Positions 338 through 64,000 of a DNA stretch of 64,000 nucleotides are shown here, one piece after another. A model generated the notes under the pieces. That model had not been told where the DNA came from and searched no databases. It saw only the letters and a list, made by a program, of their open reading frames with translations. This stretch comes from Pogonophryne albipinna (lineage: Eukaryota > Chordata > Actinopteri > Perciformes > Artedidraconidae): contig CM053253.1 of the NCBI GenBank assembly GCA_028583405.1, positions 9,788,441-9,852,440 on the forward strand. The letters are read 5' to 3'. The first letter of the stretch is position 1. Every line of letters starts with the position of its first letter. The translations under genes and the position numbers were made by a program.

Positions 338-3180
338 AGAGTGAGGAGGAGAACGAGGTCAGAAGAGTGGCAAAAGAAAAAAAACGAAAGTTGAAATCTG
401 AGCCGGATGCGAAAGCGGGGCAGGAGACGGAGGAAAGGAACACAATCAAGAAACAAAAGGAGGAGCAAGCAGATGAAGAAAATCATGAAACCTTTTTGCT
501 CTTCATCAAAAGATACTGCAGTGACACGAGTGCAGACCCTTCTGTTTCTGCCTTCTTAAGTCCGACCCACTGCGCGAACGTCATTAAAGCCTGCTACTCC
601 CTGCCATACTGCCTCTACCTGTACATGGATGTGGAGCTGGGCTTAGAAAAGAACACAAGTGTCGTCCTGGTGGGATATTTCGACCAAAACTCAGGTGTCA
701 GTGTGGTAAAGCCGCTGCTCACGCTGCAGCTGAGCGGCAGCTATGCTGACCCTCAGTACTCAGTGGACGCACACGCTGAAACTGATGCAATCCATCTAAT
801 CAAAGAGCTGAAGAGGAATGATCTTTGGCTGCCCAACGCCTCTGTGTTTTACTGTAACGCTCCGAACCTGAGGGCGAGCAACGTGTTTCTATCACACCTC
901 CAGCCTTTCAACCAAAATATCATATCGCTCTGCGGCCTCCCTGGGATGACGTCACGTGCCTGCCAGGCCGGACTCTTGTCTTCCTTTAGTTGTGTGGTTG
1001 ACCTCATTAGAGACATCCACTACCACTACTACACCTGCTCCTCCATCAGTGACAGTGTGAAAGGCCTATTTGCTGATGAGAAGTACTACAACCCCTCCCT
1101 TCCCATCGCTGCACAGTGTCTGTTCATCATCCACGCTTGTCAGAAGATGGTCGACTGCTGGAGGCTTTTAGTGGAGTATTTTAAGTCATTGAAGCAAGTA
1201 GAGGACTCCAACCGTATCAGAGCCCAGCTGTTGGATTATAAAATCCGCCTGCGCATCATTTTCCTCGCCCAAAATTTGGAGCCCATCCGGGCCCTTCAAG
1301 AGTTGCAGGCCTCCAGCAACGCATGCGTGTCCGTGGAGCTCCAGCTAACCTCCATGGTGATGCACTCGTTTGCGTCCAGTCTGCTCCGGCCCTCCGCCAT
1401 AGAGAATTTTCTCAACAAGCGAAACGTGAGTCACCTCCGAACCAGCTCGGACCTGCTCCCTGTCAAAGAGGTGCGCGTTGGTTATAGTGCCAGAGACTTT
1501 CTGTGGGCCAGCGCTGTCGTGGATCTGGGGGAAGCGGACAGGAAGGTCTTCCTGAGCGATGCGAAAGCTTTCTATAAAGCAGTACTGGAGAGTTTTGCGG
1601 AGAGTCTTCCTGAGGATCTGGGGGATGTGGCACTGAAGAATATGGGCAGGGTGCTGGGACATTCTGAGGATATCAACGTAAGGATATCTTTTTTGGTTCA
1701 TTCAAAGTGACACTTAATGCAGTCAGCTCCTGCTTAACATTTGTTGAGCCTGTATGATGCGGATTGTATATTTAAAATGAATACAATAAACTAAATCATA
1801 GTAGGGATGCAGTCAAACATGTCTTTACTGGACTATATCAAATATTTTGGCTGTTTTCTCCCAAAAATTTAAGAATTCTCTCCAGAATTAGATGTATAGA
1901 TACAGCATTAAAACTGTTATGACAAAATAGAAGGCACTTTGAATCTCTGGATGGGCCGCATATTCACTATCTGTATTTTGCTTCCTTTTGATATATGTGT
2001 TTTTCTTCCAGGGAAATAAATTGACCGCAGGAGTGCTCACAGAGTTGGCGGATCAGCTGGGTCTGTTCAAAGCTGGGGTTAGCGGAAAGAAAATTCTGGT
2101 CAGCAGCTACTTCCATTTCCTCAAGACCACAAAGAAGGAACAAAGTGTCAGCTGGAAAAAGGTAAACTAACAACACAATGGAGCAAAGTTGCCTACGATT
2201 ATCAAATTACATTTTTAAGTGAAGAATACTGGTGTTACCTTATCAGGTAAACTTAATGAGTAACAGAATTCCTACAGTAGCTCATGATTAATACAAAAAA
2301 AAAAGTGTCATCATTTGAATGATATATATATATATTGATTTGATTTACGTTAAGTTGCAGAAAAACTGCTGGTTCTGAAGCTATCAAAAGTCATTACAAT
2401 GGCTGCCTGTGTTCTCTTCATAGATATTGAACATGAACAGACATTTCACGAGTCTGCGTAGACTCTTCCTGACGATCCTGGCCCTGCCGAGCTCTCTTCA
2501 CAGGACACAGGTGTTTGCTAAGGTGAGTGTTAATAGTTAAATCTGTTCTGAAGGCTGACAGTCGGTTCAATAACTGAATCAGAGGCCATTTTCACAAAAT
2601 CTTATTTTAAAGGGATAGTTTGGATCTTTTAAAGTGGGATTGTATGAGGAACTAATCCATAGTCAGCATTTACAGTATCAACCAATCAAAAAACAAAACA
2701 TCATATTTTATGATCAAAACATCACATACGTTTGTCTTTAATATAACCTTGATACCAACCGAAAACAAACACAGGAGTGAATCAAATCCTATTCCAAGGG
2801 GTCCTATTATACTCTTTGGGGTTTTCCCTTTCCTGTAGTGTGTTATATCGTTTTTTTTGCATGTAAATGATCTGCAACGGCAACAAACCCAAACTGTATC
2901 TCCCATCCCCAACCCCCAAATTAAGAAGATGTTTGTCTACACTAGCCATTAGCTTATTTGGGTGACTTTGATGTTTGAATGGTTGGTTCGTAATCACAAA
3001 GTATATACTCATCAATGAATCAAGGACATGTGTGCTTTAAACTGTTGGTTATGTATTTTTGTGAACATGTGTGTTTTTGCTCCTGATTTAAAGATGTGCA
3101 ACAAGGCTCTTCCTCAAAGCAAGGAACCCCCCATATCCTTATCTGAATTGTACGAAAGGCTAAGAATACCCAACACATTG
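338..3180 (+). other. hAT-transposase-derived module of the DNMT3 gene (exons 1-4)
   Basis: About 555 residues before the DNMT3 linker follow the order of hAT transposases of the SCAND3/ZNF862 kind. Seen: a strand with GYFD (~679), a CNAPN segment (~861) where family members have SDNA, then LCGLPG, then a helix reading [14 protein letters not shown] (~995-1036) that matches the family's DLLxDIYxHF region, then [11 protein letters not shown]. Exon 2424-2522 plus the start of exon 3094-3337 give [14 protein letters not shown], then QVFAK and MCNKALPQ, which matches the C-terminal hAT dimerisation segment (LxxLAxxLLxIPxS, then ERVFS). The segment spans a splice junction, which ties these exons together. 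Acidic catalytic positions appear lost. A KEKKRKLK patch at about 379-402 may be a nuclear signal. Assignment is by eye against remembered consensus. Confidence 0.75.
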
Positions 3181-6100
3181 AGGAAGTATCGGAAGAAACC
3201 TGTCCAGTCAAAAAATGACAACAAGAGGAAAGAGGAGTCTTCCTCAGATGATGGTGCTGTGGCCAAACCACGGTTACAGCTTCCCTCCAAACGCCCCATC
3301 ACTAAGGAGGACTCGGAAAAAACGGACAATTCTTCAGGTAAGACTGTCAGGTGTGATTTCAGAGTGTAGCTCACGTTTCTGTACCAGCCTCAGGACAGTT
3401 TTATCTCACAGACCACCATTGAATTCCTGATATTACCACTTACATTTGTTCATAATACGCTGTTCTTCTATACAGCTGTATTTCCCTATATCTACATAGT
3501 TAAATGTCATTATAGTACAGTATTACATTTCACATTCTGTTTCATTTTAATGTATTTTTACCTGTACATGGTTAACTTATTCCTGCATTTACTTGCACTA
3601 TTTAATTTTTATTTTCTTATTTACTTTATGTCTTAAGTATATTTTATGTGTATCACCATTCACACTCATAACCAACGATTAAATTGTACTTTACATACAT
3701 CTTTTAATAATACTATGCTGTACAAGATTGAAATTCAATTTGATTGTGTTTTCTCTTTTTCTCAGATGTGGTGGATGTCACTGAAGGGTCCAAAATGAGG
3801 CCCAGAAACATGAAGCCAGGAAGTAAGAATGGATGTGGAATATTTTAAATGATGTAGTATTAATAATGTTATAGTTATTGACATAAATGTAAACACAATA
3901 TGTACTTATTGTAATCCTAGTGTTGTGAACAATGCTATATTTAACGTGTGTATGGAAACATATTCAGTAGGTCATTGTAACTGTATTGCAGGTGAAAGTA
4001 ATCCAAAGGCAAAGTATGCATGCGTTGAGGACAGTAAAAACGATGATGAAGACAGCGACTGCATGATTTTAACAAGAACACCACCCAAGACTGCAGACTT
4101 AACGGTAAAAATAGTTCATTCAGATGAGCATTTTTTAAAACAACAAATCAAACCTGCATTTATCTCTTCAAACATTGATATTCTAACAACACATTTTTGC
4201 TTGTTAAGTTTGGTGGCATTAAAGGTTTGTGTGTGTTGTCTAGGATGTGATGGGGGAGCTGGTCTGGGGTCTGGTGGAGGGCTTTGCTTCCTGGCCAGCC
4301 GTCATTGTCCCGTCTAATGAAGAGAAGCAAGATCCAGAGAGGAGGATGGTGTCGTGGTACGGACAGAACATGTCCTCTACGGTGAGTCAGATGTGAGCGG
4401 TAAAACGTTGCAGGTTGTTACAAAAATCATAAATGCTTAATAGTGACACTAAGGGTTAGGCAAAATGTGATTGGCTGAGAACATCGCTGTTTATTTAGCT
4501 AATTTAATTGTATGCCCAGAAAGAGCTTCTGAGAGCAAAGCTTTGCGGGTTGTCTTTTTATAAAACTCCATGCCGGTTGAATCAGTGGTCTGCGTGGTTT
4601 TAACTCTGCTCAGATGCTTGTAACCAAATAAAGTACTGGATACTATCCATAACCACTGTTCAAACAGATCTTTAATTGGAAAGCTTTTTTACATCACTAT
4701 CAAGTTTAGGCAATGACAGTTTTAGATTCTCAGTCTCCCTTCAAAAATGCTCCATGATAATCTATATATATAAGAGAACCCTAGTATCAAAATCAAATCT
4801 TTTTAAAACAATTTTTCATATAGTTTTGAAATGTGTTTGAGTTTGAAATATTGTCAACACATCGCCATGCACTTCTTATAGTAACTGAATAAATGTAACT
4901 CTGGTTCCAGATCAAGTTTCAGGCTCTGAAACCGTTCGCTTCCTTCGCCCAGCACTTCTCCTCCAACTCCTTCGCCATCCTCGACACCTACCGAGAATCC
5001 ATCTTCTTGTCTTTGAAGGTCTGAGAGTCTCTCTGTGTATTTCCTGATAAACATAAACTGAAAATATGTTGTTGACTTGACCGCCCACACAACATATGGG
5101 ATCCTAAAAAGTGCACATATGTGATGCAGATTTGTGCTCTTGCTAACATGTTTGTATCCATGCCTTTTAGGAGGCAGCCCTGCGTTGTAAGAAGCCGTTT
5201 ACTGCGTCTGATGAGGACCGCGACGAGCTGCTGAAGCAGATGTTGGACTGGGCCCTCGGAGGGTTTCTGCCCTCGGGGCCGGGCGGACTCAAAGCAACGG
5301 CAGCCTCAAATGGTATGATTGAAGAAGTGCCTGAATAGATGTATCACTGCTTTCAGACTAAAAGGAGTTTTTTCTCAGAGGTAATGTCAGAGGCATTTGA
5401 CAGCAATTAAGCATTCATATGTATTCATATGTATCTTTTACTGTGCTTTTGTTGTATATTAAATACACTTTTCCGGACAGCACTATTGAAAGCAAAAGTC
5501 TGAACATCAGCTAACTGCTAGCCTTGTCGCATTTCGGTATGTTAATGGTTTTCAATGAAATTGAATTTTTGAATGGATTTGTATCTGTCTTTTTGATCAA
5601 ATGTTCTATTTCAGTAGAGTTGTACAGCAATTCCATAGAATTATACCTTGAAACTTTTCTGTTTCTAATGTGTTGGAAAAAACTACAGCTCTTATTAAAA
5701 ATGTACTGGAGCAGCAGACTGGGTACTTTCATCATTGTATCTCATAGGTTTCTTTCATATTTAAGAACATGACCAGCACTCTATAAGTGTACATTTGTTC
5801 TAGCTTAAGCTGTTCTCTTTGCTAAAAATATGTCCACAGTGTTTGCAACAAAAACAGCACTGATATCTTTGTATCTAGACATGGATTCAACCACTTTAAC
5901 TGTTGAGTTTATTCAGCTTTCTTTGAGGATTAATACAAATGTCTTCTCATTTCTGGAAAAGAATGATCTGTTACTGCTTCTTCATTAAGTGTTCACGGTC
6001 TCCCAACTTTTAAGTCAAGCGCACAATTCCTTTTTGAAATATAAATGTGCATCAAAAAGCACATAGGAGTTCAAACACGGGAACTCGAACTAACGTGTAA

Positions 6101-9100
6101 AAAGCCCTTCAGAATCACAATCAGGTTTATTGTAAAGAAGGTTACACATAAAAGGAATTTGCTTGGTGCATAACAATAAACATAGTAAGGTCAAATAAAA
6201 ATACAATAAACAAGATGTGAAGAATGTCTGTGAAGATATAGGGTTGTGCAACGATTAACAGTAAACAGCATGTGTGAAATATGCTGAGATATGACTCCAA
6301 AAGATGTGCAACGTACTTGGAGGGGGGGGGGGGGGTTGCTTTAACTTTGGGTCACAGAGTTTCCGGCCCTGTTGATGAGGCCAGCTGCAGGAAGTGTTTT
6401 TGAGGTTTTAGTCCTGGGAGGGCTCGGCCACCATCTCTCCGGCAGCCTCAGAGTCCTGGAGGCAACAGGTCCTGCAGCCAATCAGCTTCTCTGCTCAGTG
6501 AGTGATGCGCTGCAGTCTGTCCTCCATCTTGGCCAGGTGGCGATGAAGGAGGTGACCATGGACTCCAGACACTGATGGCAGTTTAGAAGGTCACCATGTT
6601 CAGGTGATTTCCCATCCACTTTTTGTATGCACACATTGAAATGTGCATAAAAGCAGGTGGATGTGGAGTGGAAAGGTTGTTTACACTTGGCTGAAGGAGA
6701 AACAGAACAGATTCAGATAAATCATTTAACTTCAACGTCAACTGAATCTTCCTCTCCACTGAATACATGAAGCAACAGATTTAACTCTCATTAATAGATG
6801 AAACAAACAAATGTAATATTTCCATAATGTTTTCTACGCTTCTTTCAACATTTGAGGGTCGACCGGCACTGTTTTAATTCATCTTGTTGCGCCCTCTTCT
6901 GCAATGTTACAATAACTTAAATATATAACTCGTAATAATTGCATGTTGGTATTCCAGTTCCTTCAATTTTTTTGTGCCATTTTTCTCAAAATTCGGTTAC
7001 AATTTCCAATACATTTGGACGGAAACCCGGCTAATCGTGGACGTGAGGAAGTGTGCCATTGTTGTCTGTGACAAGTTCATACAACAAGATAAAGAAAATG
7101 TTGGAGTGATGCCAGACAGCATCTTGTTAGACAAAACCGCTTCACAGACTTGTATACACACACGATGTTACTGTATTTACCTATAAATATAACTTTTCTT
7201 TACTGTTGTGTAAAATATCTGATGCTCACTTCTATTATTGTCTCCTGTTTAGGTGTAACTGAAACAAAAGTGACGGTGAAACTCTTCTCGAAGGTCATCT
7301 CCTCTCACACGGCCATGAGCTCCTCACCCCCGATAAGCAGCAAGAGCAACATCCTCAGCACTCTGACAAAAGAACTGTCAATCTGCTTAAACAGACTGCC
7401 GCTGGAGAAGTACTCAGTGCACAGACCTGCAAATGGAAAAACATTGGAAGAAGGATTTGAGTTTGCAGGAAAATTCAATAATGGAGTTGCGAAAGAGAAG
7501 GTGTCCAGAGGAGAATGGGAGGGGGAGAGTAATGACTGGAGAGAAATATTGGGAAAGGAGAGAGGGAGCGGTAAGGGAGGGAAGTTGCAGAAGAAGAAAT
7601 TCAGTCCCTCTGATGATCTTCTTGACGATGATGTGTCACCGGATTATGTGCCCCACAAGACGAGGGACTACGCTAAAACGTACAATAAAGTCAACCATCC
7701 TTCCAGCACATACACACAGCCGAACCAGAAACACAGAGGTAGTTCATCACAATCTAAATCTTTCTTTCTCATTCACAGATGTAAAACAGGTCATGTAAAA
7801 TATATATATAATTAAAACGGTATAAATAGAAGCAATTATTAAGCAAGGAACATTAGTGAAAAACAAAAATAATATTAAAATAAATGTATATTGCATACAT
7901 ATATCTGAGTACTAGATTTGTGTTTGATATATTGATTTTATTTGTTTCCTTACAGAGAGGGCCATCCGTAAGATCATGGACTTAAAGCTGGAAATTGAGG
8001 GTGAGCTTAGGCATGTTGTATGTCCTTTTTGATGTGATTAGTTTCTTTGATTTTGTAGCGGAGAATATTGAAGTGAGCAGTTCATTCGTCGATTTTATGT
8101 GCACAGTTCTATATGAATGAATGTGAGGTAATCTATTATTAGGGTTATATGATTTCTGAGGTTTGAAACATATTTACCGTATAACATGAAAGGCATGCTT
8201 TTAAATGTAGTCATTGTGTCTTTGTTTGTGTTTTGTCTGCAGGCTTTTGTTTGTGCTGTGGTACTGAAGACGTGGAGATATTTCACCCTCTTTTTAAAGG
8301 CAGCCTCTGTGTGAAGTGTAAAGTAAGGAATCATCAACTTGTCTCTATGTTTCGAACAAGCAGTTACCATTGTACTGTGAATATGTGTGAAAATGGAAGA
8401 AACATTCGTATCCTCCCTAGATAACACACTACTCAAATAGATTTTTCAGAGGGGTCAAAGTGCATTTGCACTGTTCTTTCTGCTGAGCTCTACCTCTGTT
8501 AAACCCTCCCTAACCAGTGTCTGTGATGCTGTCTGTGTCCCTGTAGAATAACTTAACAGAAACTCTGTATCGGTACGATGAAGATGGATATCAGTCCTAC
8601 TGCACCATCTGCTGCTACGGAATGGAGGTCATAATGTGTGGCAACGACAGCTGCTGCAGGTTGGTTGGTTCATCTCTTTCTCAAGTATTATTAGCTATAT
8701 AAATAAAAGGTTTTCTTTATTTGTCTAAAAGTGAAATACAGTGTGTAACACATCTGCATTAAAATATCTTAGAACGACCAGACCAATGTAGGTGAGCTCT
8801 GTACTTACATCCAACATGTTTCAAATAATGTTCTAACCTAAGAAATATGTCATTTGAATCAAGGTGCGTTTTATTTTGTCGCCTGTCAATGGCATCATAT
8901 GCTCTTTACCCCCTGTAGTTGCTCTAACTTATAAAATATGTTTACATAAATTGCATGCTTTGCGCATAACACAGTTATCCAGTAGAGACATTAATAATAA
9001 GATATTACAATCTTGCTAAAGCTTACTTCTGGCACATGGTGGATCATCCCAACCACCAAGTTAATGCATCATAAAGTGACAACATCAGTGGTAGGAGCTT

Positions 9101-12100
9101 TTTTTTAACTCATCTTATTGTAAGTTATGAAGTTAAGGCAACAAGAACTCTTTAACTTGTGGCTATACGAATACAAAGTGTTTTAGTCTGAGAGACCCCT
9201 AGATAAAGGTATTTCATACTCTTCATTAATTGTCTTTCCAACCCGTTCTGCTCTACCTCTCCATCTGCAGATCCTATTGCGCGGACTGTATGGACATCCT
9301 GGTCGGTGCGGGGACGTTTGATTCGTTGAAGGAGCTGGATCCGTGGATCTGCTTCCTGTGTCAGCCTCATCGACCGCACGGCGCTCTGATTCCCAGAGAG
9401 GACTGGAGCATCCGTGTTCAGGAGTTATTCGCCAACAACAGTGCCATGGAGTTTGTGAGTGATCTACAGAGCTTTTGTTTGAACAATTGTTCATGTCTAA
9501 CACAGTTATATACAGGGCCGGCCCTAGACTTTTGGGGGCCCTAAGCGAGCTTTGGCTTGGGGGCCCCCCTCACTCTAGCACGTTCTCACTACACACAACA
9601 CGGAACCAACTTTTGTCTTATGATGTTAGCATAAGCACACATATTGTATCAATAAGCATGTAAACACAGTGGACCTAACCTCCTCTAGGGGGGTCCCCAC
9701 CTCCTCTAAGGGGGTCCTCACCTCCTCGAGGGGGGTCCGGAGGCATGCTCCCCCTGGAAGATATTTTTTTTAAATATTGAAGTTAAAAGCATCAATCTGG
9801 TGCACTTTGAGAGCAAAATTAAGAGATCTATGGATACATCTCTCAACACCCATATGAAACAGAACTGTAAACAGATGTTTCTTTATGGATATTTTACAAA
9901 TCACTTAAACTGTATTCTTGTTTTGTCATATAGTATTTCATAACTGTTTTTCATTTATTCTCTCTGGCTGTCCATCTCATAATGTTCACATAGAAACTAG
10001 CTGTCAATAGGAATATCATTCAGAAGAATTATAATTTCTTGCAAAAATCTGTCACAAAAAGAGGTTGCACATTTAAATTCAGGTGTTGTTATGGCAACGT
10101 CAGTGGCCAAACAGCCACATTTACTGCTGCAAATACGTTCAAACATGCTGTCGACACGTAAAGCAGTGGCAACTATGCCACCATTTCAGCTGACTTTTTC
10201 TCAGAAATACTGTCACATAACATCCATATATTTCAGTGCTAGGTTGATGCTTAGCTAAGCTAACTATGAAACACTTTAACTGACAGGACTCAGGATCAAC
10301 TGTGTACTGTGAGGTAGCTTCTAGCTTCATGTCGAACAGTAAGTCAACATTTCCCAGAGAGCTTTCTTTGAAATCACCAGGTAACGCTAAAAAACATAAC
10401 ATTTAGATTGTATGACAAAGTGTTTATTTAATATATCTGGCTAGCTATAGCTACTTGCTGACGGTTTAGCTTACCCCACGATTCAAAGTAACGTCAACGT
10501 AGCTGTAATTTATGCTTTGCTTACATGTTTGCATAACTTGGAAGTTTACTGACATTTACATACCTTGTTTACCTGGCTCAAGTGGTGGCTCTGGGGTTGT
10601 TGTGTGAGCCACCACTTGAGAATTTTCGTATTTTTTAAGAAATGTTTATCTTATGCCCATCTTCAAAAACTCTGAGTCCGACTGACAGTTTATTTTAAAC
10701 ATTGTCACAGCTCACAGGATAGGTACCTGTCAGCCAATAAGACAGATGTTTATTTCCATTCAACTCTCAGGTTGGTATGGTGTCTTGCCTCTGTTGCATT
10801 CATTGAACACGGGAAATTACAATCCTGCCGTCCTCTCTAGTGTCATGATGAGGTTCAGGTAAAGCACGGTTAATGTATTATATTATTGACTCAATAATAT
10901 AATACATGACTTTGAGAGTAGGCAATCTAGGCATGTTAACAAAATTAATTAAACATACTTATCACGGCGACGGTGTACTGAGATAATTTCTCTTTTTTCA
11001 TATATATATTTTTTTCCATTTTTTGCTAGGGGGCCCCTTAGTGGCTGCGGGGCCCTAAGCGGTCGCTTATGTCGCTTAATGGGTCGGGCCGGCTCTGGTT
11101 ATATACGTGGTTATATATGTTAGCAATTCATTTTCTGTCAATCAACAAGTTAATGATTTGACAAATCTCCTTTCAATATTATGTTTTTTTTATCTTGTAG
11201 GAGCCTCACCGTGTTTACCCGTCCATCCCTGCAAACCTGAGGAGACCGATCAAAGTTCTGTCCCTGTTTGATGGAATAGCAACAGGTTAGTGAACACACA
11301 CATTTAACTTTCTGTAAACAATAAAAATATATTACAGGAAAAAGCGAATGTGTTGTAAACTGGAGGAGAAGTAGAGATTTTTCTAATTTCTCAATTAAAT
11401 ATTTTCTCCTTCAAATCAAAGGTAACTTAACAACGAAAATAAGTATTCATTAGAAATGAGAATTTGTGGGGTTCTCCGGCAGGTTCTTGAGCTCCTCTTA
11501 TTGTAATCAATAATCTCATCATTTCGAGTTCATTTCAGTTACAATGTTTACAGGAAAAACACTGAACTAATTAAGGTTCATAAGATTGATTTTAGCATTG
11601 TCTTTGCCCTAACATGCATTTGGGAAACCTGGTCCTTAATCTCATTCAAACACTGATTTTACAAGTCTTCCTGATTATTTTCCAGGCTTACAGCATGTTT
11701 ATGTGTGTCTTTCTGTATTTGTTCAGGCTACCTGGTGCTGAAGGATCTCGGCTTCAAAGTAGACGAATGTTATGCTTCAGAGATTTGTGAGGATTCGATT
11801 GCAGTGACGACCGTCAACCACGACGGGAAGATCATCCACGTTGGAGACGCCCGCTTCATCACCCAGCAACACGTATGTTCATTTTCTGTACATTTGCAAC
11901 CTTTCACACAGTTAACAATGTTTTGTCTTTTGTTTGAAGTTCTTATTTGTTGTTGATTTGAGTCATATATTTTTTGATATATCTTGACTCAATACTGAAC
12001 CAAACCATCTCTGTGTTCCTCTTTGACCTCCAGCTGGAGCAGTGGGGTCCGTTTGATATGCTGATCGGTGGCAGCCCCTGTAACGACCTCTCCATCGTCA

Positions 12101-15100
12101 ACCATTTAAGAAAAGGCCTCTATGGTACGTTACTGTTGTATGTGTTTCAGCACTAAATACATTTGTTGTCAACAATTAGAAATGCCAAGTTAAACTGCAT
12201 AATCATTTATTGCACATATGGTCAATGTATTTGCTGTAATCCCCTCCTCTCTCCTGCAGAGGGCAGTGGCAGGCTGTTCTTTGAGTACTACCGCATCCTC
12301 CAGCTGCTGAAGCCCAAGGAGGAAGACCCCAGGCCGTTCTTCTGGCTCTTTGAGAATGTCGTCTTCATGAACACGCATGACAAAGTCAACATCTGCCGCT
12401 TCCTCGAGGTGGGCAACATTTGGTTTCTTTTTATGTTGAGCTCGTTCCTTCTCTTACTGTTACCTCTCGTTTTACCTTTCCCGTGTCTTTCCCTTCCTGC
12501 TGTCCTCATAGCTCTAGTGCAGGGGTGTCAAATTCAATTTAATCGCGGGCCACATTCGCATTATGGTTGCACTCAAAAGGGCCGGTTGTAACATTAAGAC
12601 TATATAAAAATACATGTATAAATATTTAATATATATATAATAATGCATTATATTACATTATTGCCTCTGCATTGGATTGTTATCGGAGAGGGTAATAACT
12701 TCATAATTAACTAGGTCTGAAAGCAGAAGTCTAGGGCAAGTAATTGCAAGTCTCTTCAGTGAGAATGTCACAAAATGATTTAAAAAGAAAAGCACATTCT
12801 GGAAAAAAATCCAAAATAAAAAAAGGCATATTTTGAAGAGAAAAAGGGAAATTCTGAGAGAAACTCAAATTTGAGAAGCATTTTGCTACATGTATGCGCA
12901 ACGTGCTTCTGTAAATCGCCATGTAACCATATAATAAACATATTATATTCTTTGCAAGCTCTTGTGGGCCACATTAAATGAAGTTGCGGGCCGGATTTGG
13001 CCCCCGGGCCTTGAGTTTGATACCCCTGCTCTAGTGTTTTTCTCAACAATGACTTATGTGATTATGTGATTCTTCAACAGTGCAACCCGGTGTTGGTGGA
13101 TGCAGTCAAAGTTAGCCCTGCTCACAGAGCACGATACTTCTGGGGAAACATCCCGGGGATGAGCAGGTGAGACTTTCAATTACACATACATTATAATCAG
13201 GGCTGCACATAACTGGTGCGCAGGTGCGCATGTGCACCTCCGCCAAAAAAAGAGCACCGGGTCATTTGAAAAAAGGCGCATTTGCATACCAAAATTGAGA
13301 GAGAGAGAGGGAGAGAGAGAAGGGAGAAGAGAAGAGAGAGGAGAGAGAGAGAAAGATATTTGCGAGTTGCATATGAACTCAGGGTCGGCACGTAGCACTG
13401 GCGTTATAGATGTTCGCCTAGGGCGCCAGATCCGGGGAGGCGCTGCTCTGGGAGGGAAAAAAACCTTTTTGACCGTTGGTGCTAATCCTAATTTTCGGCC
13501 TTGATGTAGGCCTAACAATATTCATAATTAAGTAAATGTAACACCCTTTTCACCCCGGTTACACGTTTCATTTGCCCTGTACGATGGGCGCTGTAAGTGA
13601 TGAAAATGGGGGATGTTGGCTTATCTGGCGCCCGCAGCTCACAGCCAAAATGCGAGTGAGCGAGGGAGAAGGGCGCACCGCCCGGTACCGGCGCTGTTGT
13701 TATTAGAATCTGGTGCTAGCTGCTCTAACGGATATAAGAAGAAGATGTTTCTACAATGATGTGGAGGGAGAGCTCTCTCCAGTCAGACTGAGTGGCTGAT
13801 AACTCCAGCTCAGTGAGGTAAGGACTCTGAGTGTTAGATAGTTCACTTTAGTCTAAGTTCAAACAGTTTGGTCACAATTTATGTAAACACATATTTCCAA
13901 GGCACTCCTTTATAATTATTGGGATAAAACAGGTTTTAAATCATTCCAATGTATACTATAGGACAGTAAACCAAAAACATCCTATAAAACTGGAGAGATA
14001 AAAAAAATGCATAAATATATAAATGTTAAGGTAAAATAAGATATGAATGAACAACACAAATAAAATAAGTTACATTCATTTGTTATTGGCTATGGTAGGT
14101 TATTGGTTATGTTCACATACTTATTTGATTACGTCCACTTGTCTAAGATGACAACAGAGACTTTCGACCCAAACCCAGCTGTTGACTTGTGGATGCAAGC
14201 AGCTAATCGCAGACTCAACCAGAGAGAAAGTAGTAGGCCTACATCATCAGCTACCATGTCTGACAGAGAGGAAGACAGTGAGGAGAACAGTCAGGAGGGT
14301 AGTGATGACAGCTTGTAGGATTACTGGTCGTGCTAATGTTGTCTTGTGTTCACCTCTGCATGTGTGTTCTGTGTTCACCTCTGCATGTGTGTTCTGTGTT
14401 CACCTCTGCATGTGTGTTCACCTCTGCATGTGTGTTCTGTGTTCACCTCTGCATGTGTGTACAGTGCCGTGTGTCTGGCAAATAAAGTCAAGACCCCCTC
14501 AAAAGTTACGGTTTATTTCATTTTAAGGATGAGCACCAAGCAACATCTCCAGGTGCTCCTTTGAGAACCAGGGCAAAAAAGTTATGTGCACCCCTGATTA
14601 TAATGGTTGAACTAATTGTGTCAAACTATGTATTTGATAAGAGTCATATGTTATTGTTAACACATAAGTATTCTATAGTTTTTACTCATTATCTTTGTTG
14701 CCCTTTCTTTGCTCTGAACTGCTGTCTCATTGCTTTGTTTAATATGTTCTTACATGTCTTCCCCCCCATCAGGCCCATCATAGCGTCCCAGAACGACAAG
14801 CTGATTCTGCAGGACTGTTTAGAGATCGGAAGAGAAGCCAGGGTCAGTGACTGAACCTGCTGCATCACATTTCGTTATTTTGCTCAATGTGACTTTATTT
14901 TAACCAAAAAACAAATATGATTGTAGGGTTCATCAAGATACAAATAATCACTCTGTCTGTGTGTTTTTTTATTCCAGGTCACCAAGGTGAGGACGATCAC
15001 TACCAATTCAAACTCTCTAAGGCAGGGCAAAGGACCGTCTTCTCTGCTGCCCGTCCTCTACAACGGCAGGGAGGACAGCCTCTGGATCACTGAACTGGAA

Positions 15101-15566
15101 AAGTAAGCATCTTTATAGATGTATTACAGATTGTGTATTTGTAACAAGCTAAATGTGCTGCACACTAAAATGACAAGAAGAAGACTGTGTTGGTCTTCCC
15201 TGCTTTCAATTATTTATTTTATTTTCAAAAACACTTCATTATGTTAGTCATATTTCTGTTGATAGAAATAATCGAATATATAGTTGCAGATCTAAATGTA
15301 ACACCCTGAGACTTTGACTGATGAGATCTGGTCCCTTATTCTTCTCCAGGATCTTTGGTTTCCCCAAACATTACACGGACGTGAGGAACATGACCCGGCA
15401 GCAGAGGCAGAAGGTGTTGGGGAAGTCGTGGAGCGTGCCCGTCATCCGCCACCTCTTCGCTCCCCTCAAGGAATATTTTGCCTGTGAGAAGCTGCCTCCT
15501 CTGACCATATCCTCCATCTACTCCCCATCCTCCCCTGACTCTCCAGAGATGATGCAACTCAGATAG
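338..15566 (+). CDS. dnmt3b: DNMT3B-like de novo DNA (cytosine-5)-methyltransferase with N-terminal hAT-transposase-derived region (5' end outside window)
   Basis: Transfers methyl groups from S-adenosylmethionine to cytosine in nuclear DNA. Exons by GT-AG and phase: 338-1677, 2012-2161, 2424-2522, 3094-3337, 3766-3822, 3992-4104, 4244-4381, 4911-5018, 5171-5312, 7253-7738, 7956-8000, 8243-8322, 8547-8659, 9271-9454, 11201-11285, 11727-11872, 12034-12124, 12260-12408, 13081-13166, 14773-14842, 14978-15102, 15350-15566. They join without frame break into about 1421 residues before the stop at 15564. Order: lysine/glutamate-rich lead, hAT-like module, linker, PWWP, ADD, methyltransferase with a ~20-residue tail after the conserved FACE end. 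The first exon starts with two bases of a split codon after an AG at 336-337, so the true start lies upstream. Teleost dnmt3bb paralogs are reported with a calponin-homology N-terminus; such an exon, if present, is left of the window. Paralog identity is unresolved. Confidence 0.9.
4244..5312 (+). other. PWWP domain exons of the DNMT3 gene
   Basis: Exons 4244-4381, 4911-5018 and 5171-5312 encode [19 protein letters not shown], then a short loop, then RMVSWYG, then [14 protein letters not shown] and a C-terminal helical part with [15 protein letters not shown]. This follows the DNMT3B PWWP (DLVWGKIKGFSWWPAMVV, RWVQWFGD, FSQHF, SYRKAMYHALEKA). The name-giving tetrapeptide is ASWP: the tryptophan before the WP pair in mammalian SWWP is serine here. 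In the family this domain binds H3K36-methylated nucleosomes and DNA. Confidence 0.88.
6112..6260 (+). repeat. SINE-like repeat in DNMT3 intron
   Basis: The stretch contains the fish SINE/L2-tail signature AATCACAATCAGGTTTATTG followed by GGAATTTGCTTGGTGCAT. A related copy is at 47578-47690. It lies in the large intron 5313-7252, which also holds a 12-G run near 6326. Nothing else recognisable was seen in that intron. Confidence 0.5.
7956..9454 (+). other. ADD (ATRX-DNMT3-DNMT3L) zinc-finger domain exons
   Basis: Exons 7956-8000, 8243-8322, 8547-8659 and 9271-9454 encode the cysteine-rich ADD. The series of CxxC pairs is complete: CLCCG, CVKC, CTICC, CGNDSCC, CADC, CFLC. The signature [10 protein letters not shown] is intact, as is the [10 protein letters not shown] helix that in mammals packs against the catalytic domain. 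In the family the ADD reads unmethylated H3K4 and relieves autoinhibition. Exon 7253-7738 upstream is a low-complexity linker rich in serine, lysine and acidic residues. Confidence 0.9.
9513..11097. mobile_element. Non-autonomous hAT element (intron of DNMT3), 8-bp TSD
   Basis: Imperfect terminal inverted repeats: CAGGGCCGGCCCTAGAC at the left, and a right end whose reverse complement starts CAGAGCCGGCCCGAC. The flanking direct repeat GTTATATA (9505-9512 and 11098-11105) is 8 bp, diagnostic of hAT. No transposase ORF remains. A ~95-bp internal segment (9730-9822) recurs in the hAT element at 26934-28147. Confidence 0.85.
12520..13028. mobile_element. Non-autonomous hAT element with CAGGGGTGTCAAA termini, 8-bp TSD
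   Basis: Starts CAGGGGTGTCAAATTCAA and ends TTGAGTTTGATACCCCTG, a widespread fish and vertebrate hAT-MITE end type. It is flanked by CTCTAGTG at 12512-12519 and 13029-13036. It lies in the intron between methyltransferase exons 12260-12408 and 13081-13166, only about 45 bp upstream of the latter's splice acceptor. No coding capacity. Confidence 0.9.
13198..14596. mobile_element. hAT element with transposase C-terminal remnant, 8-bp TSD
   Basis: Starts CAGGGCTGCACATAACTGG and ends AAGTTATGTGCACCCCTG. It is flanked by ATTATAAT at 13190-13197 and 14597-14604. A short + strand remnant at 14148-14318 reads [21 protein letters not shown] followed by an acidic serine-rich tail, resembling the end of some hAT transposases. 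An internal ~25-bp minisatellite occupies 14346-14465. It lies between exons 13081-13166 and 14773-14842. Confidence 0.85.
14346..14465. repeat. Minisatellite, unit about 25 bp
   Basis: Four to five copies of a unit containing GTTCACCTCTGCATGTGTGT, some shortened, inside the hAT element 13198-14596. Open frames over it are cysteine/valine-rich by repetition only. Confidence 0.85.
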
Positions 15567-17417: not shown

Positions 17418-19806
17418 AATTATACCTCCTTTGAAAGCCTTGTTTTTAGTCTTACGCATCCGACCTGGAAAACTTTGTAACAATCTTAGTTGTTAGAGTG
17501 TACCGTGCACCAGGTCCTTATTCACTATTCTTATCGGAATTCTCTGAGTTTTTATCAACGTTGGTACTTAAAACAGATAAAGTAATTATCGTAGGTGACT
17601 TTAATATTCATGTTGACGATGATAAAAATAGCCTTACTGTTGCATTTAACTCTATATTAGATTATATTGGTTTCTGTCAGAAGCTAAATAAACCAACCCA
17701 CTGCTATAATCACACTCTCGACCTTGTTCTGACTTATGGTATTGAAATTGAGCAACCATTAGTCGAACCGCATAATCCTGCTTTATCCGACCATTTCTTA
17801 GTAACTTTTGAAGTACTGTTACTAGACTACAAAGCATTAGTCAAAAGCTCCTGCAGCAGAAACCTATCTGTTAGTGCTATAGCCAAATTTAAGGAAGAGA
17901 TTCCACCAATACTTAACTCAATAGCATATCTGCATGTAAGGGAGGAAACTTATACAAAATGTACACCACCCCAAATTGATCATGTTGTTGATAGTGCTAC
18001 AGATGCGCTGCGAATAAAATTAGACTCTGTTGCTCCTTTGAAAAAGAAGAAAATAAAACAACATAGATTAGCTCCATGGCATAATGCCGAAACCCGCAAA
18101 ATAAAGCAAAAGTCGAGACAACTTGAAAGGATATGGCGTTCCACTAAACTTGAAGAATCTCGTTTGATTTGGCATATTACTCTCAATGAATATAATAAAG
18201 CACTGCGTAAAGCGAGAGCAGCCTACTACTCTTCATTAATAGATGACAATAAGAATAATGTAAGATTTATTTTCAGCACTGTAGCCAGGCTGACAGAGAG
18301 CCATAGCTCGATTGAGCCTTCTATTCCCATAGCACTCAGTAGTAATGATTTTATGTGCTTTTTTAACGATAAAATTGTTACTCTTAGAAACAAAATTAAT
18401 GACCTCTTGCCTTTGACCAGTATAAGTGTTATCAACAGCTCCGGGAAATGTAAGTTCTAATATTACACTCGATAGTAAATTAGAATGTTTTTCAGCCATA
18501 AACCTTGAACAATTAAACTCAATGATTCTCTCTTCTAAACCATCAACGTGTATCTTAGAACCCGTTTCCAACTAAGCTGTTGAAGGAAGTTTTTCCATTA
18601 ATTAACACTTCTTTATTAAATATGATGAATATGTCTTTATTATCAGGCTATGTTCCACAATTATTTAAAGTAGCAGTGATAAAACCTCTTCTTAAAAAGC
18701 ACAACATTGATCCAGAGGTTTTAGCCAACTATAGACCTATTTCTAATCTTCCGTTCCTCTCAAAAATTCTTGAGAAAGCGGTGTCAAAACAGTTGTGTGA
18801 TTACTTAAAAAACAATGATTTATTTGAAGATTTTCAGTCTGGCTTTAGAACACATCATAGCACAGAGACAGCTCTGGTTAAAGTCACAAATGACCTTCTA
18901 ATAGCCTCAGACAAAGGACTTGTCTGTATTCTTGTCTTGCTCGATCTTAGTGCTGCATTTGATACTATCGATCATGATATCTTATTGCAAAGACTAGAGC
19001 ACTTAGTTGGCATACAGGGAACTGCTTAGGCTGGTTTAGGTCCTATCGATCTGAACGCTCTCAGTTTGTGTGTGTCAACGATGAATCTTCTATGCAAACC
19101 AAAGTTAGCCATGGAGTGCCACAGGGCTCAGTGCTTGGACCTATTTTGTTCACATTATATATGCTTCCGTTAGGCAATATTATAAGGAATCATTCTGTAA
19201 ATGTTCATTGTTATGCAGATGATACTCAACTATATTTTTCAATCAAGCCTGATGAAAACCAATCATCTAAATAAAATTCAAGACTGCCTCAAGGACATAA
19301 AAACGTGGATGACCTTACATTTTTTTATGTTAAACACGGCCAAAACTGAAGTTTGGTTTGGTTTGCCTTGCCATCTTACCTTAAAGAACTCATTATACCC
19401 TACTGTCCTACTAGGGCATTGCGTTCCAAGAATGCAGGGTTGTTGGTTGTTCCTAGAGTCTCTAAAAGTACAATGGGAGCCAGAGCCTTTTCTTATCAAG
19501 CTCCACTTTTGTGGAATCAGCTTCCAATTTGTGTTCAGGTGGCAGACACCCTATCCGTTTTTAAGAGTGCGCTTAAGACCTTCCTTTTTGATAAAGCTTA
19601 TAGTTAGGGCTGATTAGATTCAGCCGCTAGTTTTGCTGATATAGGCTTAGACTGTCGGGGGACACCTTAGTTCTTCCTTCTCTCTGGCTGTACCTGTGTA
19701 CTCTCATGTTCCGAATATTGAATATTGATTGACTGATATTCTGTACAAACTGTGAAGTCCACTGAGACAAATGTAACATTTATGATATTGGGATATATAA
19801 ATAAAC

Positions 19807-34171: not shown

Positions 34172-35171
34172 NNNNNNNNNNNNNNNNNNNNNNNNNNNNN
34201 NNNNNNNNNNNNNNNNNNNNNNNNNNNNNNNNNNNNNNNNNNNNNNNNNNNNNNNNNNNNNNNNNNNNNNNNNNNNNNNNNNNNNNNNNNNNNNNNNNNN
34301 NNNNNNNNNNNNNNNNNNNNNNNNNNNNNNNNNNNNNNNNNNNNNNNNNNNNNNNNNNNNNNNNNNNNNNNNNNNNNNNNNNNNNNNNNNNNNNNNNNNN
34401 NNNNNNNNNNNNNNNNNNNNNNNNNNNNNNNNNNNNNNNNNNNNNNNNNNNNNNNNNNNNNNNNNNNNNNNNNNNNNNNNNNNNNNNNNNNNNNNNNNNN
34501 NNNNNNNNNNNNNNNNNNNNNNNNNNNNNNNNNNNNNNNNNNNNNNNNNNNNNNNNNNNNNNNNNNNNNNNNNNNNNNNNNNNNNNNNNNNNNNNNNNNN
34601 NNNNNNNNNNNNNNNNNNNNNNNNNNNNNNNNNNNNNNNNNNNNNNNNNNNNNNNNNNNNNNNNNNNNNNNNNNNNNNNNNNNNNNNNNNNNNNNNNNNN
34701 NNNNNNNNNNNNNNNNNNNNNNNNNNNNNNNNNNNNNNNNNNNNNNNNNNNNNNNNNNNNNNNNNNNNNNNNNNNNNNNNNNNNNNNNNNNNNNNNNNNN
34801 NNNNNNNNNNNNNNNNNNNNNNNNNNNNNNNNNNNNNNNNNNNNNNNNNNNNNNNNNNNNNNNNNNNNNNNNNNNNNNNNNNNNNNNNNNNNNNNNNNNN
34901 NNNNNNNNNNNNNNNNNNNNNNNNNNNNNNNNNNNNNNNNNNNNNNNNNNNNNNNNNNNNNNNNNNNNNNNNNNNNNNNNNNNNNNNNNNNNNNNNNNNN
35001 NNNNNNNNNNNNNNNNNNNNNNNNNNNNNNNNNNNNNNNNNNNNNNNNNNNNNNNNNNNNNNNNNNNNNNNNNNNNNNNNNNNNNNNNNNNNNNNNNNNN
35101 NNNNNNNNNNNNNNNNNNNNNNNNNNNNNNNNNNNNNNNNNNNNNNNNNNNNNNNNNNNNNNNNNNNNNNN
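34172..35171. other. Assembly gap of exactly 1000 N
   Basis: 1000 consecutive N, a conventional fixed gap size, so the true distance is unknown. The left flank is MORC3 intron duplicate; the right flank begins inside a minisatellite. Missing MORC3 3' exons could lie here. Confidence 0.99.
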
Positions 35172-38875: not shown

Positions 38876-41113
38876 GGGGCCTCATTTATAGGGATGGAAC
38901 GATACCAAAAACTCATGGTACGATAATATCGCGATAAAAAGTCCACGGTACGATATTTATCGCGATATTGAAAAATAAAGGAAAAAAATGTGGGAATTTT
39001 TTTTTCTTCATTAAATAATACATCTGATTTGTACAGCATTTGAGTAGGATAGTAGTATTTTAAAGTGTCAACAATATAATAATCAGACCCGGCAATAGAA
39101 TAAATCAAGTTTCACTTTAGTTTTTCAAGTAACTCAACTCTAACTCTCTCACTCAGCGTCATCAAGGTTATCTTTTAGGGATATGAGCATGTCCACATTT
39201 CCAGGTAGAAGCTGGGATGTTTGGGCGTTTGCAAAACCCCCTGCTGTGGAAACAACTCTCCTGCTTGTTACTGATGTTGCTGGGACAGAGAGATATGCTT
39301 TGGCCATGGGTAACAGCAGTGGGTCAAACTGTGCATTGTCTCTCCACCACTTCAACAACAATACAGTGTTTGCCAAGAAGGTGAGGCTTATTGACAGAGA
39401 TATAGATATCCTGTTGGTACTGGTCAATGTCTCTAGGTATGTACATGTAGCCCTGTAAATACCATGTCCTTTTGTTATCTGTTGTTTTATGTTCGTGTTG
39501 TAACCTACTTGCTGCCATGTTGGACAGGTCTCCCTTGAAAAAGAGTTCGATGATCTCAACGGGACCATCTGTTTGAATAAAGGTTTAAAAAAATATATAT
39601 ATTTAGTTTTTTTTTTTTTTAAATTGCGGTATATTTTGTCAGTCTCACGACGGTATTGAGACATTTATTTACCGCGATATTCGATTTATCGTTACATCCC
39701 TACTAATTTATAATGCCGTGCGTAGGATTCACGTGGGAAGGTTGCTCACGTAGTAGAAATCCAAAAAATATGGACAGAAATGTTCCGTCATTTTCCGACT
39801 CTCAAAACATTGCTTACCGGTGCAGGACTCGCGTACGGCACTTCCTACGCCGGTTTCCCTTTATAAATCACAATCGACTCGAAATGCGGTGCAGCTTTTG
39901 CGGGCTTCACGTAACGCCCATATTTGCCAATAAATAGTAAAAGAAACGCCCATTCATTCATTCATTAATTCTGACTGACTGCAGGAAGGAGATCGCAGGA
40001 AATGACGACAGAACAGCTAAAACAGACGTCTCACACCGAGTCAGATTCTGGTTATTTTGGGGAGGTGGAGATAAATCATATTGTTTGGTGGATGCCGTTT
40101 GAACCAGAGTAGCAGCATGGAGGTCGGATCGTCACCAAAATAAATAAATAAGTGGTCCGAAAAAGGTTAATGACAAACTACACACATAGCCTTCCTCAGG
40201 CAGTGTGTTTGTACCGGGGACAGGAGACCCCCCCTGGATGAGAAACTGTAAGAAGGTATCGGGGATCCCTGCGGAGTGGAGTCAATTAATGTTTATTTTT
40301 TTATTTGGCGGTTTGTGTTCCAGCTGTCGATCAGCTGTGCGCAGCGTCTCCACTGCAGCAACTCTATATCCACCAGTTAAAGGAAATACAACTAATGTGT
40401 TGAGTTATATCAGCTGCCAAATCTACCAAACATATGGTCTTCTTAGCTTCCAGACCTCCTGTGTTTTACGAGCGACTTATCAAGTCTTAGCAAACGGCAT
40501 AAAACACGATTAAACGTGATAGTATATAAAACCATGCTCGTATCTACAATAGAAATGCAACACAGCGTCAGTTCAGACGTAATTCTGTCCTCCTGCTCAC
40601 CGCATCATTGATGAGAAAACATTTCATAACATTAACACAACATATTCGAGGTGGTTTTAAATATCTGTATTTATGTATTTCTCCAGGTGATGTGTGTGTG
40701 TGTGTGTGTTCTCCAGGTGATGTGAGTGTGTGTGTGTGTGTTCTCCAGGTGATGTGTGTGTGTGTGGTGTGTGTGTTCTCCAGGTGATGTGTGTGAGCAC
40801 TAAGGAGTCTCAACAGGCGTTTGTTTAATCATTTTAAGATCAGCTTTAATCAATGTTCTTCATATCTGATAAATGAGGTAACATTTTATTGATGGTATTA
40901 TTTCCACATATTTCTCTCCATTCTTCCTTCTGCCAACGGGGTCGCAGTTTCTCGCCTCTCCAGTTGTTGTGCTTAGTGCGTACGCGTGGGTTAGAGTTTG
41001 CGTGGAGGACCGCACGTTTTCCCGTCAAGTTAGTATTTTATAAATCGCAAACATTGCGTAGAAACTGGCGTACGCCATTTTTTGAGCGTATATCTATTTA
41101 TAAATGAGGCCCC
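38876..41113. mobile_element. MITE with GGGGCCTCATTTATA termini, split by a hAT insertion
   Basis: Left GGGGCCTCATTTATA and right TATAAATGAGGCCCC are inverted repeats. The left end is interrupted after CATTTA by the element 38889-39702. The body has CG-containing repeats (GCGTACGCC, GTGCGTAGG) and a (GT)n-containing minisatellite at 40680-40795 with CTCCAGGTGATGTG units. No coding capacity. Superfamily not determined, since no clear target duplication is visible. Confidence 0.7.
38889..39702 (-). mobile_element. hAT element with transposase C-terminal remnant
   Basis: Ends TAGGGATGGAACGATA and ATCGTTACATCCCTA, with flanks CTCATTTA (38881-38888) and CTAATTTA (39703-39710), 7 of 8 bp equal. 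On the minus strand 39149-39370 encodes WWRDNAQFDPLLLPMAKAYL then SVPATSVTSRRVVSTAG and NVDMLISLKDNL, the hAT C-terminal dimerisation region of ZBED-like transposases. A LINE tail (39526-39590) is inserted inside. Confidence 0.85.
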
Positions 41114-43125: not shown

Positions 43126-43527
43126 TCAGTTTTCAGAGAGTTCTTTTTCATGCAGCAAATCCAAGAGTATTGGTAAATCCCATCCCAGGATTGCATCAAC
43201 CGGCAAGTTCTGTACCACCCCCACACTCAACAAGTACGATTGTCCATCAATGATCACGGATAGGTCCGCTTTGGGATAGGGATGCTTATCCCCGTGAACA
43301 CACAACATGTCTGTTTGTCTGCTGTAGTCCATAGCTCCAATTGGCACAAGTCTTTGCTTCACTAAAGACATGAAGCTACCAGTATCCAACAAAGCAGTGA
43401 CCTGCTGGCCATTAACAGTGACAGCTGTATGACGTTGAACACGTTCCTCTTGATCCCCAATGGGCCGCAACTCTGCCCGGGGTGCATAGCAAGCGCCTGT
43501 GACCTTAGCTTTGCGTAGGGGACACAC
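43126..43527 (-). pseudogene. Retropepsin (protease) region of the Gypsy-like element
   Basis: The translation has the aspartic protease signature ALLDTGSFMSL and the later ILGWDLPILL, the two halves of a retroviral-type protease monomer. It follows Gag in the same orientation. It ends at KELSEN, and the reverse transcriptase is deleted. Confidence 0.8.
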
Positions 43528-43532
43528 AGAAG

Positions 43533-62729: not shown

Positions 62730-62730
62730 G

Positions 62731-64000
62731 TGGGATATTTCGACCAAAACTCAGGTGTCAGTGTGGTAAAGCCGCTGCTCACGCTGCAGCTGAGCGGCAG
62801 CTATGCTGACCCTCAGTACTCAGTGGACGCACACGCTGAAACTGATGCAATCCATCTAATCAAAGAGCTGAAGAGGAATGATCTTTGGCTGCCCAACGCC
62901 TCTGTGTTTTACTGTAACGCTCCGAACCTGAGGGCGAGCAACGTGTTTCTATCACACCTCCAGCCTTTCAACCAAAATATCATATCGCTCTGCGGCCTCC
63001 CTGGGATGACGTCACGTGCCTGCCAGGCCGGACTCTTGTCTTCCTTTAGTTGTGTGGTTGACCTCATTAGAGACATCCACTACCACTACTACACCTGCTC
63101 CTCCATCAGTGACAGTGTGAAAGGCCTATTTGCTGATGAGAAGTACTACAACCCCTCCCTTCCCATCGCTGCACAGTGTCTGTTCATCATCCACGCTTGT
63201 CAGAAGATGGTCGACTGCTGGAGGCTTTTAGTGGAGTATTTTAAGTCATTGAAGCAAGTAGAGGACTCCAACCGTATCAGAGCCCAGCTGTTGGATTATA
63301 AAATCCGCCTGCGCATCATTTTCCTCGCCCAAAATTTGGAGCCCATCCGGGCCCTTCAAGAGTTGCAGGCCTCCAGCAACGCATGCGTGTCCGTGGAGCT
63401 CCAGCTAACCTCCATGGTGATGCACTCGTTTGCGTCCAGTCTGCTCCGGCCCTCCGCCATAGAGAATTTTCTCAACAAGCGAAACGTGAGTCACCTCCGA
63501 ACCAGCTCGGACCTGCTCCCTGTCAAAGAGGTGCGCGTTGGTTATAGTGCCAGAGACTTTCTGTGGGCCAGCGCTGTCGTGGATCTGGGGGAAGCGGACA
63601 GGAAGGTCTTCCTGAGCGATGCGAAAGCTTTCTATAAAGCAGTACTGGAGAGTTTTGCGGAGAGTCTTCCTGAGGATCTGGGGGATGTGGCACTGAAGAA
63701 TATGGGCAGGGTGCTGGGACATTCTGAGGATATCAACGTAAGGATATCTTTTTTGGTTCATTCAAAGTGACACTTAATGCAGTCAGCTCCTGCTTAACAT
63801 TTGTTGAGCCTGTATGATGCGGATTGTATATTTAAAATGAATACAATAAACTAAATCATAGTAGGGATGCAGTCAAACATGTCTTTACTGGACTATATCA
63901 AATATTTTGGCTGTTTTTCTCCCAAAAATTTAAGAATTCTCTCCAGAATTAGATGTATAGATACAGCATTAAAACTGTTATGACAAAATAGAAGGCACTT
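62731..64000 (+). pseudogene. Near-identical duplicate of part of the DNMT3/hAT first visible exon and following intron
   Basis: 62731-64000 equals 671-1939 apart from one extra T in a T run (T5 instead of T4, near 63915). It starts inside the hAT-like exon at the codons for GYFD, continues through the exon end at 63737 with the same GTAAGG donor, and runs into intron to the window edge. The exon's first ~111 codons are replaced by satellite, so this copy lacks its splice acceptor. It is either a very recent tandem duplication or a false duplication in the assembly. What follows is outside the window. Confidence 0.95.

What the first reader, a model, noticed from the sequence alone, without database searches (positions are those of the whole stretch)
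338..4381. In-frame fusion of a hAT transposase module to a DNMT3 methyltransferase
The exons upstream of the PWWP domain encode ~555 residues in the order of a hAT transposase: RNase H-like fold, helical insertion, C-terminal dimerisation segment. The dimerisation segment is split by the intron 2523-3093. The exon holding its end (3094-3337) also holds the linker that splices, phase-matched, into the DNMT3 exons. All 22 exons read without a stop. This is a host-transposase fusion in which the domesticated domain precedes PWWP, ADD and methyltransferase. Such a module could direct de novo methylation to DNA or dimerise the enzyme.
Basis: partly seen in the sequence, partly recalled or inferred. 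Interest (0 to 1): 0.9.

Follow-up and report, generated by a model that had tools for sequence, protein, structure and literature searches.

The report
Transposase-fold domain inside fish DNMT3 enzyme
A fish enzyme that puts new methyl marks on DNA carries, in its front half, what looks like a worn-down copy of a jumping-gene enzyme (a hAT transposase), a part shared by many fish for which I found no earlier report.

The parts
338..1677 (+). first exon in the window (4th coding exon of the gene): N-terminal tail and most of the hAT-like module; b-strands at residues 90-101, 104-115, 120-129, 167-172 of the window protein
2012..2161 (+). exon: helical part of the hAT-like module
2424..2522 (+). 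exon: C-terminal hAT-like motif [15 protein letters not shown] (residues ~515-529); T524 sits where the aligned hAT ORF has the Glu of its SERIFS motif
3094..3337 (+). exon: mostly unconserved linker
3766..4104 (+). two linker exons (3766-3822, 3992-4104)
4244..5312 (+). PWWP exons (4244-4381, 4911-5018, 5171-5312); Pfam PWWP at residues 671-729
7253..7738 (+). exon: linker between PWWP and ADD
7956..9454 (+). ADD exons (7956-8000, 8243-8322, 8547-8659, 9271-9454); Pfam ADD at residues 958-1012 and 1019-1068
11201..15566 (+). methyltransferase exons (11201-11285, 11727-11872, 12034-12124, 12260-12408, 13081-13166, 14773-14842, 14978-15102, 15350-15566 with stop)
62730..64000 (+). start of a second, 5'-truncated copy of the gene (equals 670-1939 and on; continues past the window), entered from the minisatellite

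Best explanation
The gene encodes a three-part fish DNMT3B: an EB1-type CH domain, then a catalytically dead domain derived from a hAT DNA-transposon transposase, then the usual PWWP-ADD-methyltransferase. Shown here: the frame, the domain order, the hAT-like fold (by predicted structure), its presence in many teleosts, and the absence of the hAT catalytic residues. Inferred: a hAT transposase gene was captured between the CH and PWWP parts before otophysans split from salmonids and acanthomorphs, lost cutting activity and (in this paralogue) any DNA-binding finger, and was kept because its contact surfaces are useful. The most likely mechanism is that the module dimerises or oligomerises the enzyme, or docks it on partners, and so helps set where and how densely de novo methylation is laid down. 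My estimates: hAT-derived 0.92; non-catalytic 0.9; oligomerisation or docking as main role 0.5.
Confidence: 0.62

Rival explanations
1. The module still recognises DNA, such as transposon ends, and steers de novo methylation to them: a transposase turned into a guide for silencing transposons.
For: Fold of a transposon-end-binding protein; this genome is rich in hAT copies (150 scored matches to PF05699 out of 6399 candidates, a lower bound); a paralogue in Hoplias (P0177) keeps a C..C-H-H finger just before the module, where hAT transposases have a DNA-binding BED finger (PMC10368747, abstract start and one passage; PMC4763223, passages).
Against: By the same pattern the finger is absent from the first 420 residues of the other 176 of 177 fetched proteins and of the window protein, and Pfam does not call it a BED finger (best zf-U1, E 0.03). 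The DDE and CxxH residues are not kept. No binding data.
Confidence: 0.17
2. The module is RNase H-like but not hAT-derived: another RNase H-like family that converged on a similar insertion.
For: No significant sequence match to hAT families; RNase H-like ATPases and integrases fill lower ranks.
Against: Among the listed rows only Hermes matches over nearly the whole module, 3 to 5.5 Z units above the next row outside DNMT3; a second library also returns a hAT protein first; the C-terminal LP...F motif coincides with the hAT one.
Confidence: 0.07
3. It is a neutral relic: an in-frame passenger tolerated at the N-terminus.
For: The module diverges faster than ADD-MTase (median end branch 0.2 v. 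0.088 changes per column).
Against: The frame stays open in relatives from salmonids to catfish, and the columns of W274, P518 and F527 do not vary in the 36 aligned proteins.
Confidence: 0.12
4. The fusion is a gene-model or assembly artefact.
For: The public model for the second copy joins a Crypton-like recombinase ORF to the module, so mis-joining happens at this locus.
Against: Copy 1 reads as CH-hAT-PWWP-ADD-MTase without interruption in the assembly; other genomes give the same order (62 of 81 hits also carry CH); cDNAs of CH-bearing dnmt3 genes encoding 1447 aa (zebrafish, PMC1274307, parts 1 and 2 of 3 read) and 1484 aa (ricefield eel, PMC5320511, passages) were cloned.
Confidence: 0.02

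Closest known systems
Teleost dnmt3ba / dnmt3bb.2 / dnmt3bb.3 genes (dnmt3bba/dnmt3bbb of PMC6976628)
   Same: Same gene group: N-terminal CH domain, then PWWP, ADD, methyltransferase; reported for sole, eel, trout and zebrafish (passages of PMC5513168, PMC5320511, PMC6976628; parts 1-2 of 3 of PMC1274307).
   Different: In what I read these papers note only the CH domain, no transposase-like domain between CH and PWWP. Which paralogue the window gene is was not settled here.
Hermes hAT transposase (PDB 4d1q, 2bw3, 6dww, 8edg, 8sjd, 6dwz)
   Same: Predicted fold over Hermes ~147-585: RNase H-like core, helical insertion, C-terminal segment.
   Different: 8-10% identity; no DDE, no CxxH, no finger in this gene; joined to a methyltransferase.
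Domesticated hAT proteins such as Kat1 and DAYSLEEPER/SLEEPER (PMC4763223 passages; PMC3499209 and PMC4029315 search listings)
   Same: hAT transposase kept as a host gene.
   Different: Kat1 keeps a working DDE and a BED finger (passages). That none of these is fused to a DNA methyltransferase is recalled.
Host-transposase fusions: SETMAR (PMC8994322, search listing), 'transposase capture' genes (recalled; the phrase was a search term)
   Same: A transposase domain joined to a host chromatin or DNA-binding domain (recalled).
   Different: SETMAR joins a mariner transposase to a histone methyltransferase (recalled); here a hAT fold is joined to a DNA methyltransferase and shared by many teleosts.

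Membership tests
hAT transposase | RNase H-like core with a helical insertion, matching a solved hAT structure | tested here: met
   predicted structures
hAT transposase | DDE catalytic triad | tested here: not met
   36 relatives: first site D in 2; four columns at the end of strand 4 D in 0, 4, 2, 0; last site E in 17, D in 3. Window: D97, C-N-A-P, T524. Sites assigned by motif and fold, not by a residue-level superposition
hAT transposase | CxxH motif | tested here: not met
   C in 33 of 36, H in 1 of 36; window C198, P201
hAT transposase | C-terminal dimerisation region (PF05699) | tested here: inconclusive
   Pfam 0 of 8 pieces (one piece with a typing error); fold alignment of the mullet model reaches Hermes 585; motifs coincide in hhalign without significance
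hAT transposase | N-terminal BED-type zinc finger | tested here: not met
   no C..C-H-H finger in the first 420 residues of the window protein or of 176 of 177 fetched proteins; one in P0177
hAT transposase | terminal inverted repeats, target-site duplication, mobility | not tested
   not looked for around the gene; the own-genome search with the module did not complete
domesticated hAT-derived domain fused to a host gene | in-frame fusion kept in many species, catalytic residues lost | tested here: met
DNMT3B | PWWP, ADD (two parts) and C-5 methylase domains above Pfam cut-offs | tested here: met
   33.6, 84.4, 73.1 and 69.6 bits against cut-offs 25.6, 26, 27 and 22; 3B rather than 3A rests on the names of its relatives
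EB1/MAPRE-type CH domain | match to EB-family CH structures | tested here: met
   on the Gymnodraco orthologue P0001: 10 of 13 matches are named RP/EB family member 1 or 3, best E 4.2e-25, the other 3 are yeast BIM1 and Mal3 (EB1 relatives, recalled); the same exons lie upstream of the window

The most novel reading that the evidence does not exclude
Fish turned a hAT transposase into the targeting part of a DNA methyltransferase: an enzyme that recognises transposon DNA, or assembles on it in transposase-like rings, and methylates it, so that a transposon protein became the guide of the machinery that silences transposons.
Probability: 0.15. Interest if true: 0.93.

Novelty: new variant of a known kind. 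Interest (0 to 1): 0.77.

Why it matters
De novo DNA methyltransferases are central to silencing transposons (established knowledge). Finding that one group of them contains a transposase-derived domain gives a direct, testable link between transposon capture and methylation targeting. Genes of this group exist in zebrafish, where knockdown of dnmt3bb.2 is reported to affect brain and retina (passage of PMC13205079), so the module could be deleted and tested. It also offers an identity for the long, unassigned N-terminal half of these proteins.

Tried and rejected
Sequence routes to hAT failed: Pfam on the whole protein, on the module alone and on eight members of an alignment, PDB sequence searches, eight C-terminal pieces, and a profile search for proteins of transposase length, where all 48 hits at E<=10 were the same family, the weakest at 1.8e-96 (only the 7993 candidates sharing most words were scored). 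hhalign against 31 of 43 ORFs taken from 22 hAT loci of the same genome (12 left out as near-copies or unrelated) was not significant and its reversed control scored as high. The permissive local run exceeded 200 of 200 column shuffles, but that control also destroys secondary-structure periodicity; 54 of 94 rotations reached its raw score, 6 of 94 its summed confidence; in the global run 1 of 200 shuffles and many rotations exceeded the true register. I therefore rest the hAT claim on fold comparison. Rejected: annotation artefact; recent transposon insertion (the module is in otophysans, salmonids and acanthomorphs); a Crypton-hAT-DNMT3 fusion as in public model P0004 (probably a mis-join at the second copy). 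Whether the window gene is the ba or the bb.2 orthologue stayed unsettled. Presence in gar, sturgeon or bichir was not tested. The own-genome search with the module, meant to count paralogues and transposon relatives, did not complete.

Full report
What is there. The window starts inside a gene on the + strand. Twenty-two exons from 338 to 15566 have AG acceptors, GT donors at every internal junction and matching phases; the joined frame of 1421 residues has no stop before its end. Pfam finds PWWP (671-729), the two ADD parts (958-1012, 1019-1068) and the C-5 methylase domain, and nothing before PWWP. The annotated protein P0004 of Pogonophryne albipinna is identical to it in 1240 of 1240 ungapped positions of a 1282-column alignment with 42 gap columns, and its contig has the length of the contig the window lies on, 41,761,029 bases, so the window is very probably from that Antarctic fish.

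DNA upstream of the window (fetched) holds three more coding exons. In the print the start codon lies 1,394 bases before base 1 and the exon borders read GT-AG and join in phase to 338, as in the Gymnodraco protein P0001 (borders read by eye). In P0001 this part matches EB-type CH structures: 13 PDB sequences at E<=0.01, 10 named RP/EB family member 1 or 3, best E 4.2e-25, the rest yeast BIM1 and Mal3. Conserved synteny around dnmt3b includes mapre1b (passages of PMC6976628); that this is an EB1 gene is recalled, and that the CH domain came from it is my inference.

Catalytic residues. In Kat1 and Hermes the working parts are a DDE triad, a CxxH motif whose histidine is in the active site, tryptophans (W182, W319 in Hermes) and a BED finger (passages of PMC4763223). 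In 36 relatives, picked by hand from 177 fetched proteins, the column at the end of strand 1 is D in 2, the column two on is W in 0, the four columns at the end of strand 4 are D in 0, 4, 2 and 0, the CxxH cysteine is C in 33 but the histidine H in 1, and the last acidic site is E in 17, D in 3. The window has D97, C-N-A-P at 172-175, P201 for the histidine, and T524. The sites were assigned by motif and fold, not by a residue-level superposition. Cutting activity is therefore very unlikely. In the C-terminal motif L is kept in 34, P and F in 36 of 36, and W274 in 36 of 36.

How widespread and how old. Searching residues 40-610 gave 81 proteins at E<=0.001 among 7993 scored, every one with a DNMT3 ADD domain and 62 of 81 with a CH domain; 80 of 81 bear a fish's name and one (P0064) none; identities fall from 94% (Gymnodraco) to 28% (Astyanax, Clarias). 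Starting from Clarias gave 51 proteins including the query, 3 of them also: catfishes, characins, electric fish, cyprinids (some named b.2 or b.3), salmonids and one eelpout. Candidates were limited by shared words and by length, so absence elsewhere is not shown. Hoplias malabaricus has the module in two genes, P0140 and P0177, the latter named duplicate a; their N-terminal parts share 32% over 1017 columns. Trees of the module and of ADD-MTase, 36 rows each, give the same groups; they are unrooted, and if rooted on P0177 they put otophysans against salmonids plus acanthomorphs, the expected species order. One capture before that split, and before the duplication that separated ba from bb if P0177 is truly dnmt3ba, is the simplest reading. 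P0177 also has a C..C-H-H finger (from residue 199) between CH and module, the only one by the pattern used in the first 420 residues of 177 fetched proteins; hAT transposases carry a BED finger N-terminally, but Pfam gives only zf-U1 at E 0.03.

Expression. Nothing in the window shows transcription. Published cDNAs of CH-bearing dnmt3 genes encode 1447 residues in zebrafish (and 1297 for its neighbour; PMC1274307, parts 1 and 2 of 3 read) and 1484 in ricefield eel, whose protein was detected most in testis with antiserum against residues 125-280 (passages of PMC5320511). That these contain the module is inferred from their length and from hits of like length in the same groups (Chanodichthys b.2, 1458 aa; Monopterus, 1505 aa); I did not have their sequences.

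What is in print. The rows listed by ten paper searches show no paper on a transposase-like domain in DNMT3. Of the dnmt3 papers, passages of PMC5513168, PMC5320511 and PMC6976628 and parts 1-2 of PMC1274307 mention the CH domain and no other extra domain; term searches of PMC12191198 ('CH domain', 'transpos') and PMC13205079 ('calponin', 'transposase') found neither. Most subscription papers are not in this library, so this is not proof of novelty.

How it probably works. Hermes forms tight dimers through its dimerisation domain and rings of dimers through a helix swapped from the insertion domain (passage of PMC10368747). With no catalytic triad and no finger in this gene, what remains of use is the folded body and its contact surfaces. 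I therefore favour oligomerisation or docking as the main role (about 0.5), with residual DNA recognition as the bolder alternative (about 0.15). Neither was tested.

Noticed in passing
window 62730-64000 and G000:C12 beyond: A second copy of the gene begins here at base 670 of the first copy, directly after the minisatellite; over 31,296 aligned columns (to the end of the DNA fetched) it differs by 7 mismatches and 63 gap positions. Either a very recent tandem duplication that lost the CH exons and the first ~110 residues, or a false duplication in the assembly.
   Followed up: partly
window 54907-62732: A 7.8-kb array of about 620 copies of a 13-bp unit (AGAGAGTGAATAT) separates the two gene copies.
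   Followed up: no
window 48842-49192, 53803-53871, 62817-63737: The public protein model P0004 joins a Crypton-like recombinase ORF and a short exon to what is probably the second copy of the DNMT3 gene, giving an apparent recombinase-hAT-DNMT3 fusion that is probably a mis-join.
   Followed up: partly
window 49584-50318: ORF matching DUF3504 (2.7e-14) and phage integrase (5.4e-8), a Crypton-like tyrosine recombinase (the name Crypton is recalled).
   Followed up: partly
window 39149-39664 (minus): Remnant of a real hAT transposon with the Dimer_Tnp_hAT domain (E 2.3e-13).
   Followed up: partly
window 45438-47534 (minus): 698-residue open frame that looks like an array of C2H2 zinc fingers; seen in the ORF list only.
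   Followed up: no
window 17450-19029 and 43126-44150: Open frames that look like a non-LTR reverse transcriptase (plus) and a gag/protease-like element (minus); seen in the ORF list only.
   Followed up: no
window 34172-35171: Run of 1000 N, an assembly gap beside a proline-rich simple repeat.
   Followed up: no
P0177 from residue 199 (Hoplias malabaricus): A C..C-H-H finger between CH domain and hAT-like module, not found by the same pattern in the other fetched relatives; may be the vestige of the transposase's own DNA-binding finger.
   Followed up: partly
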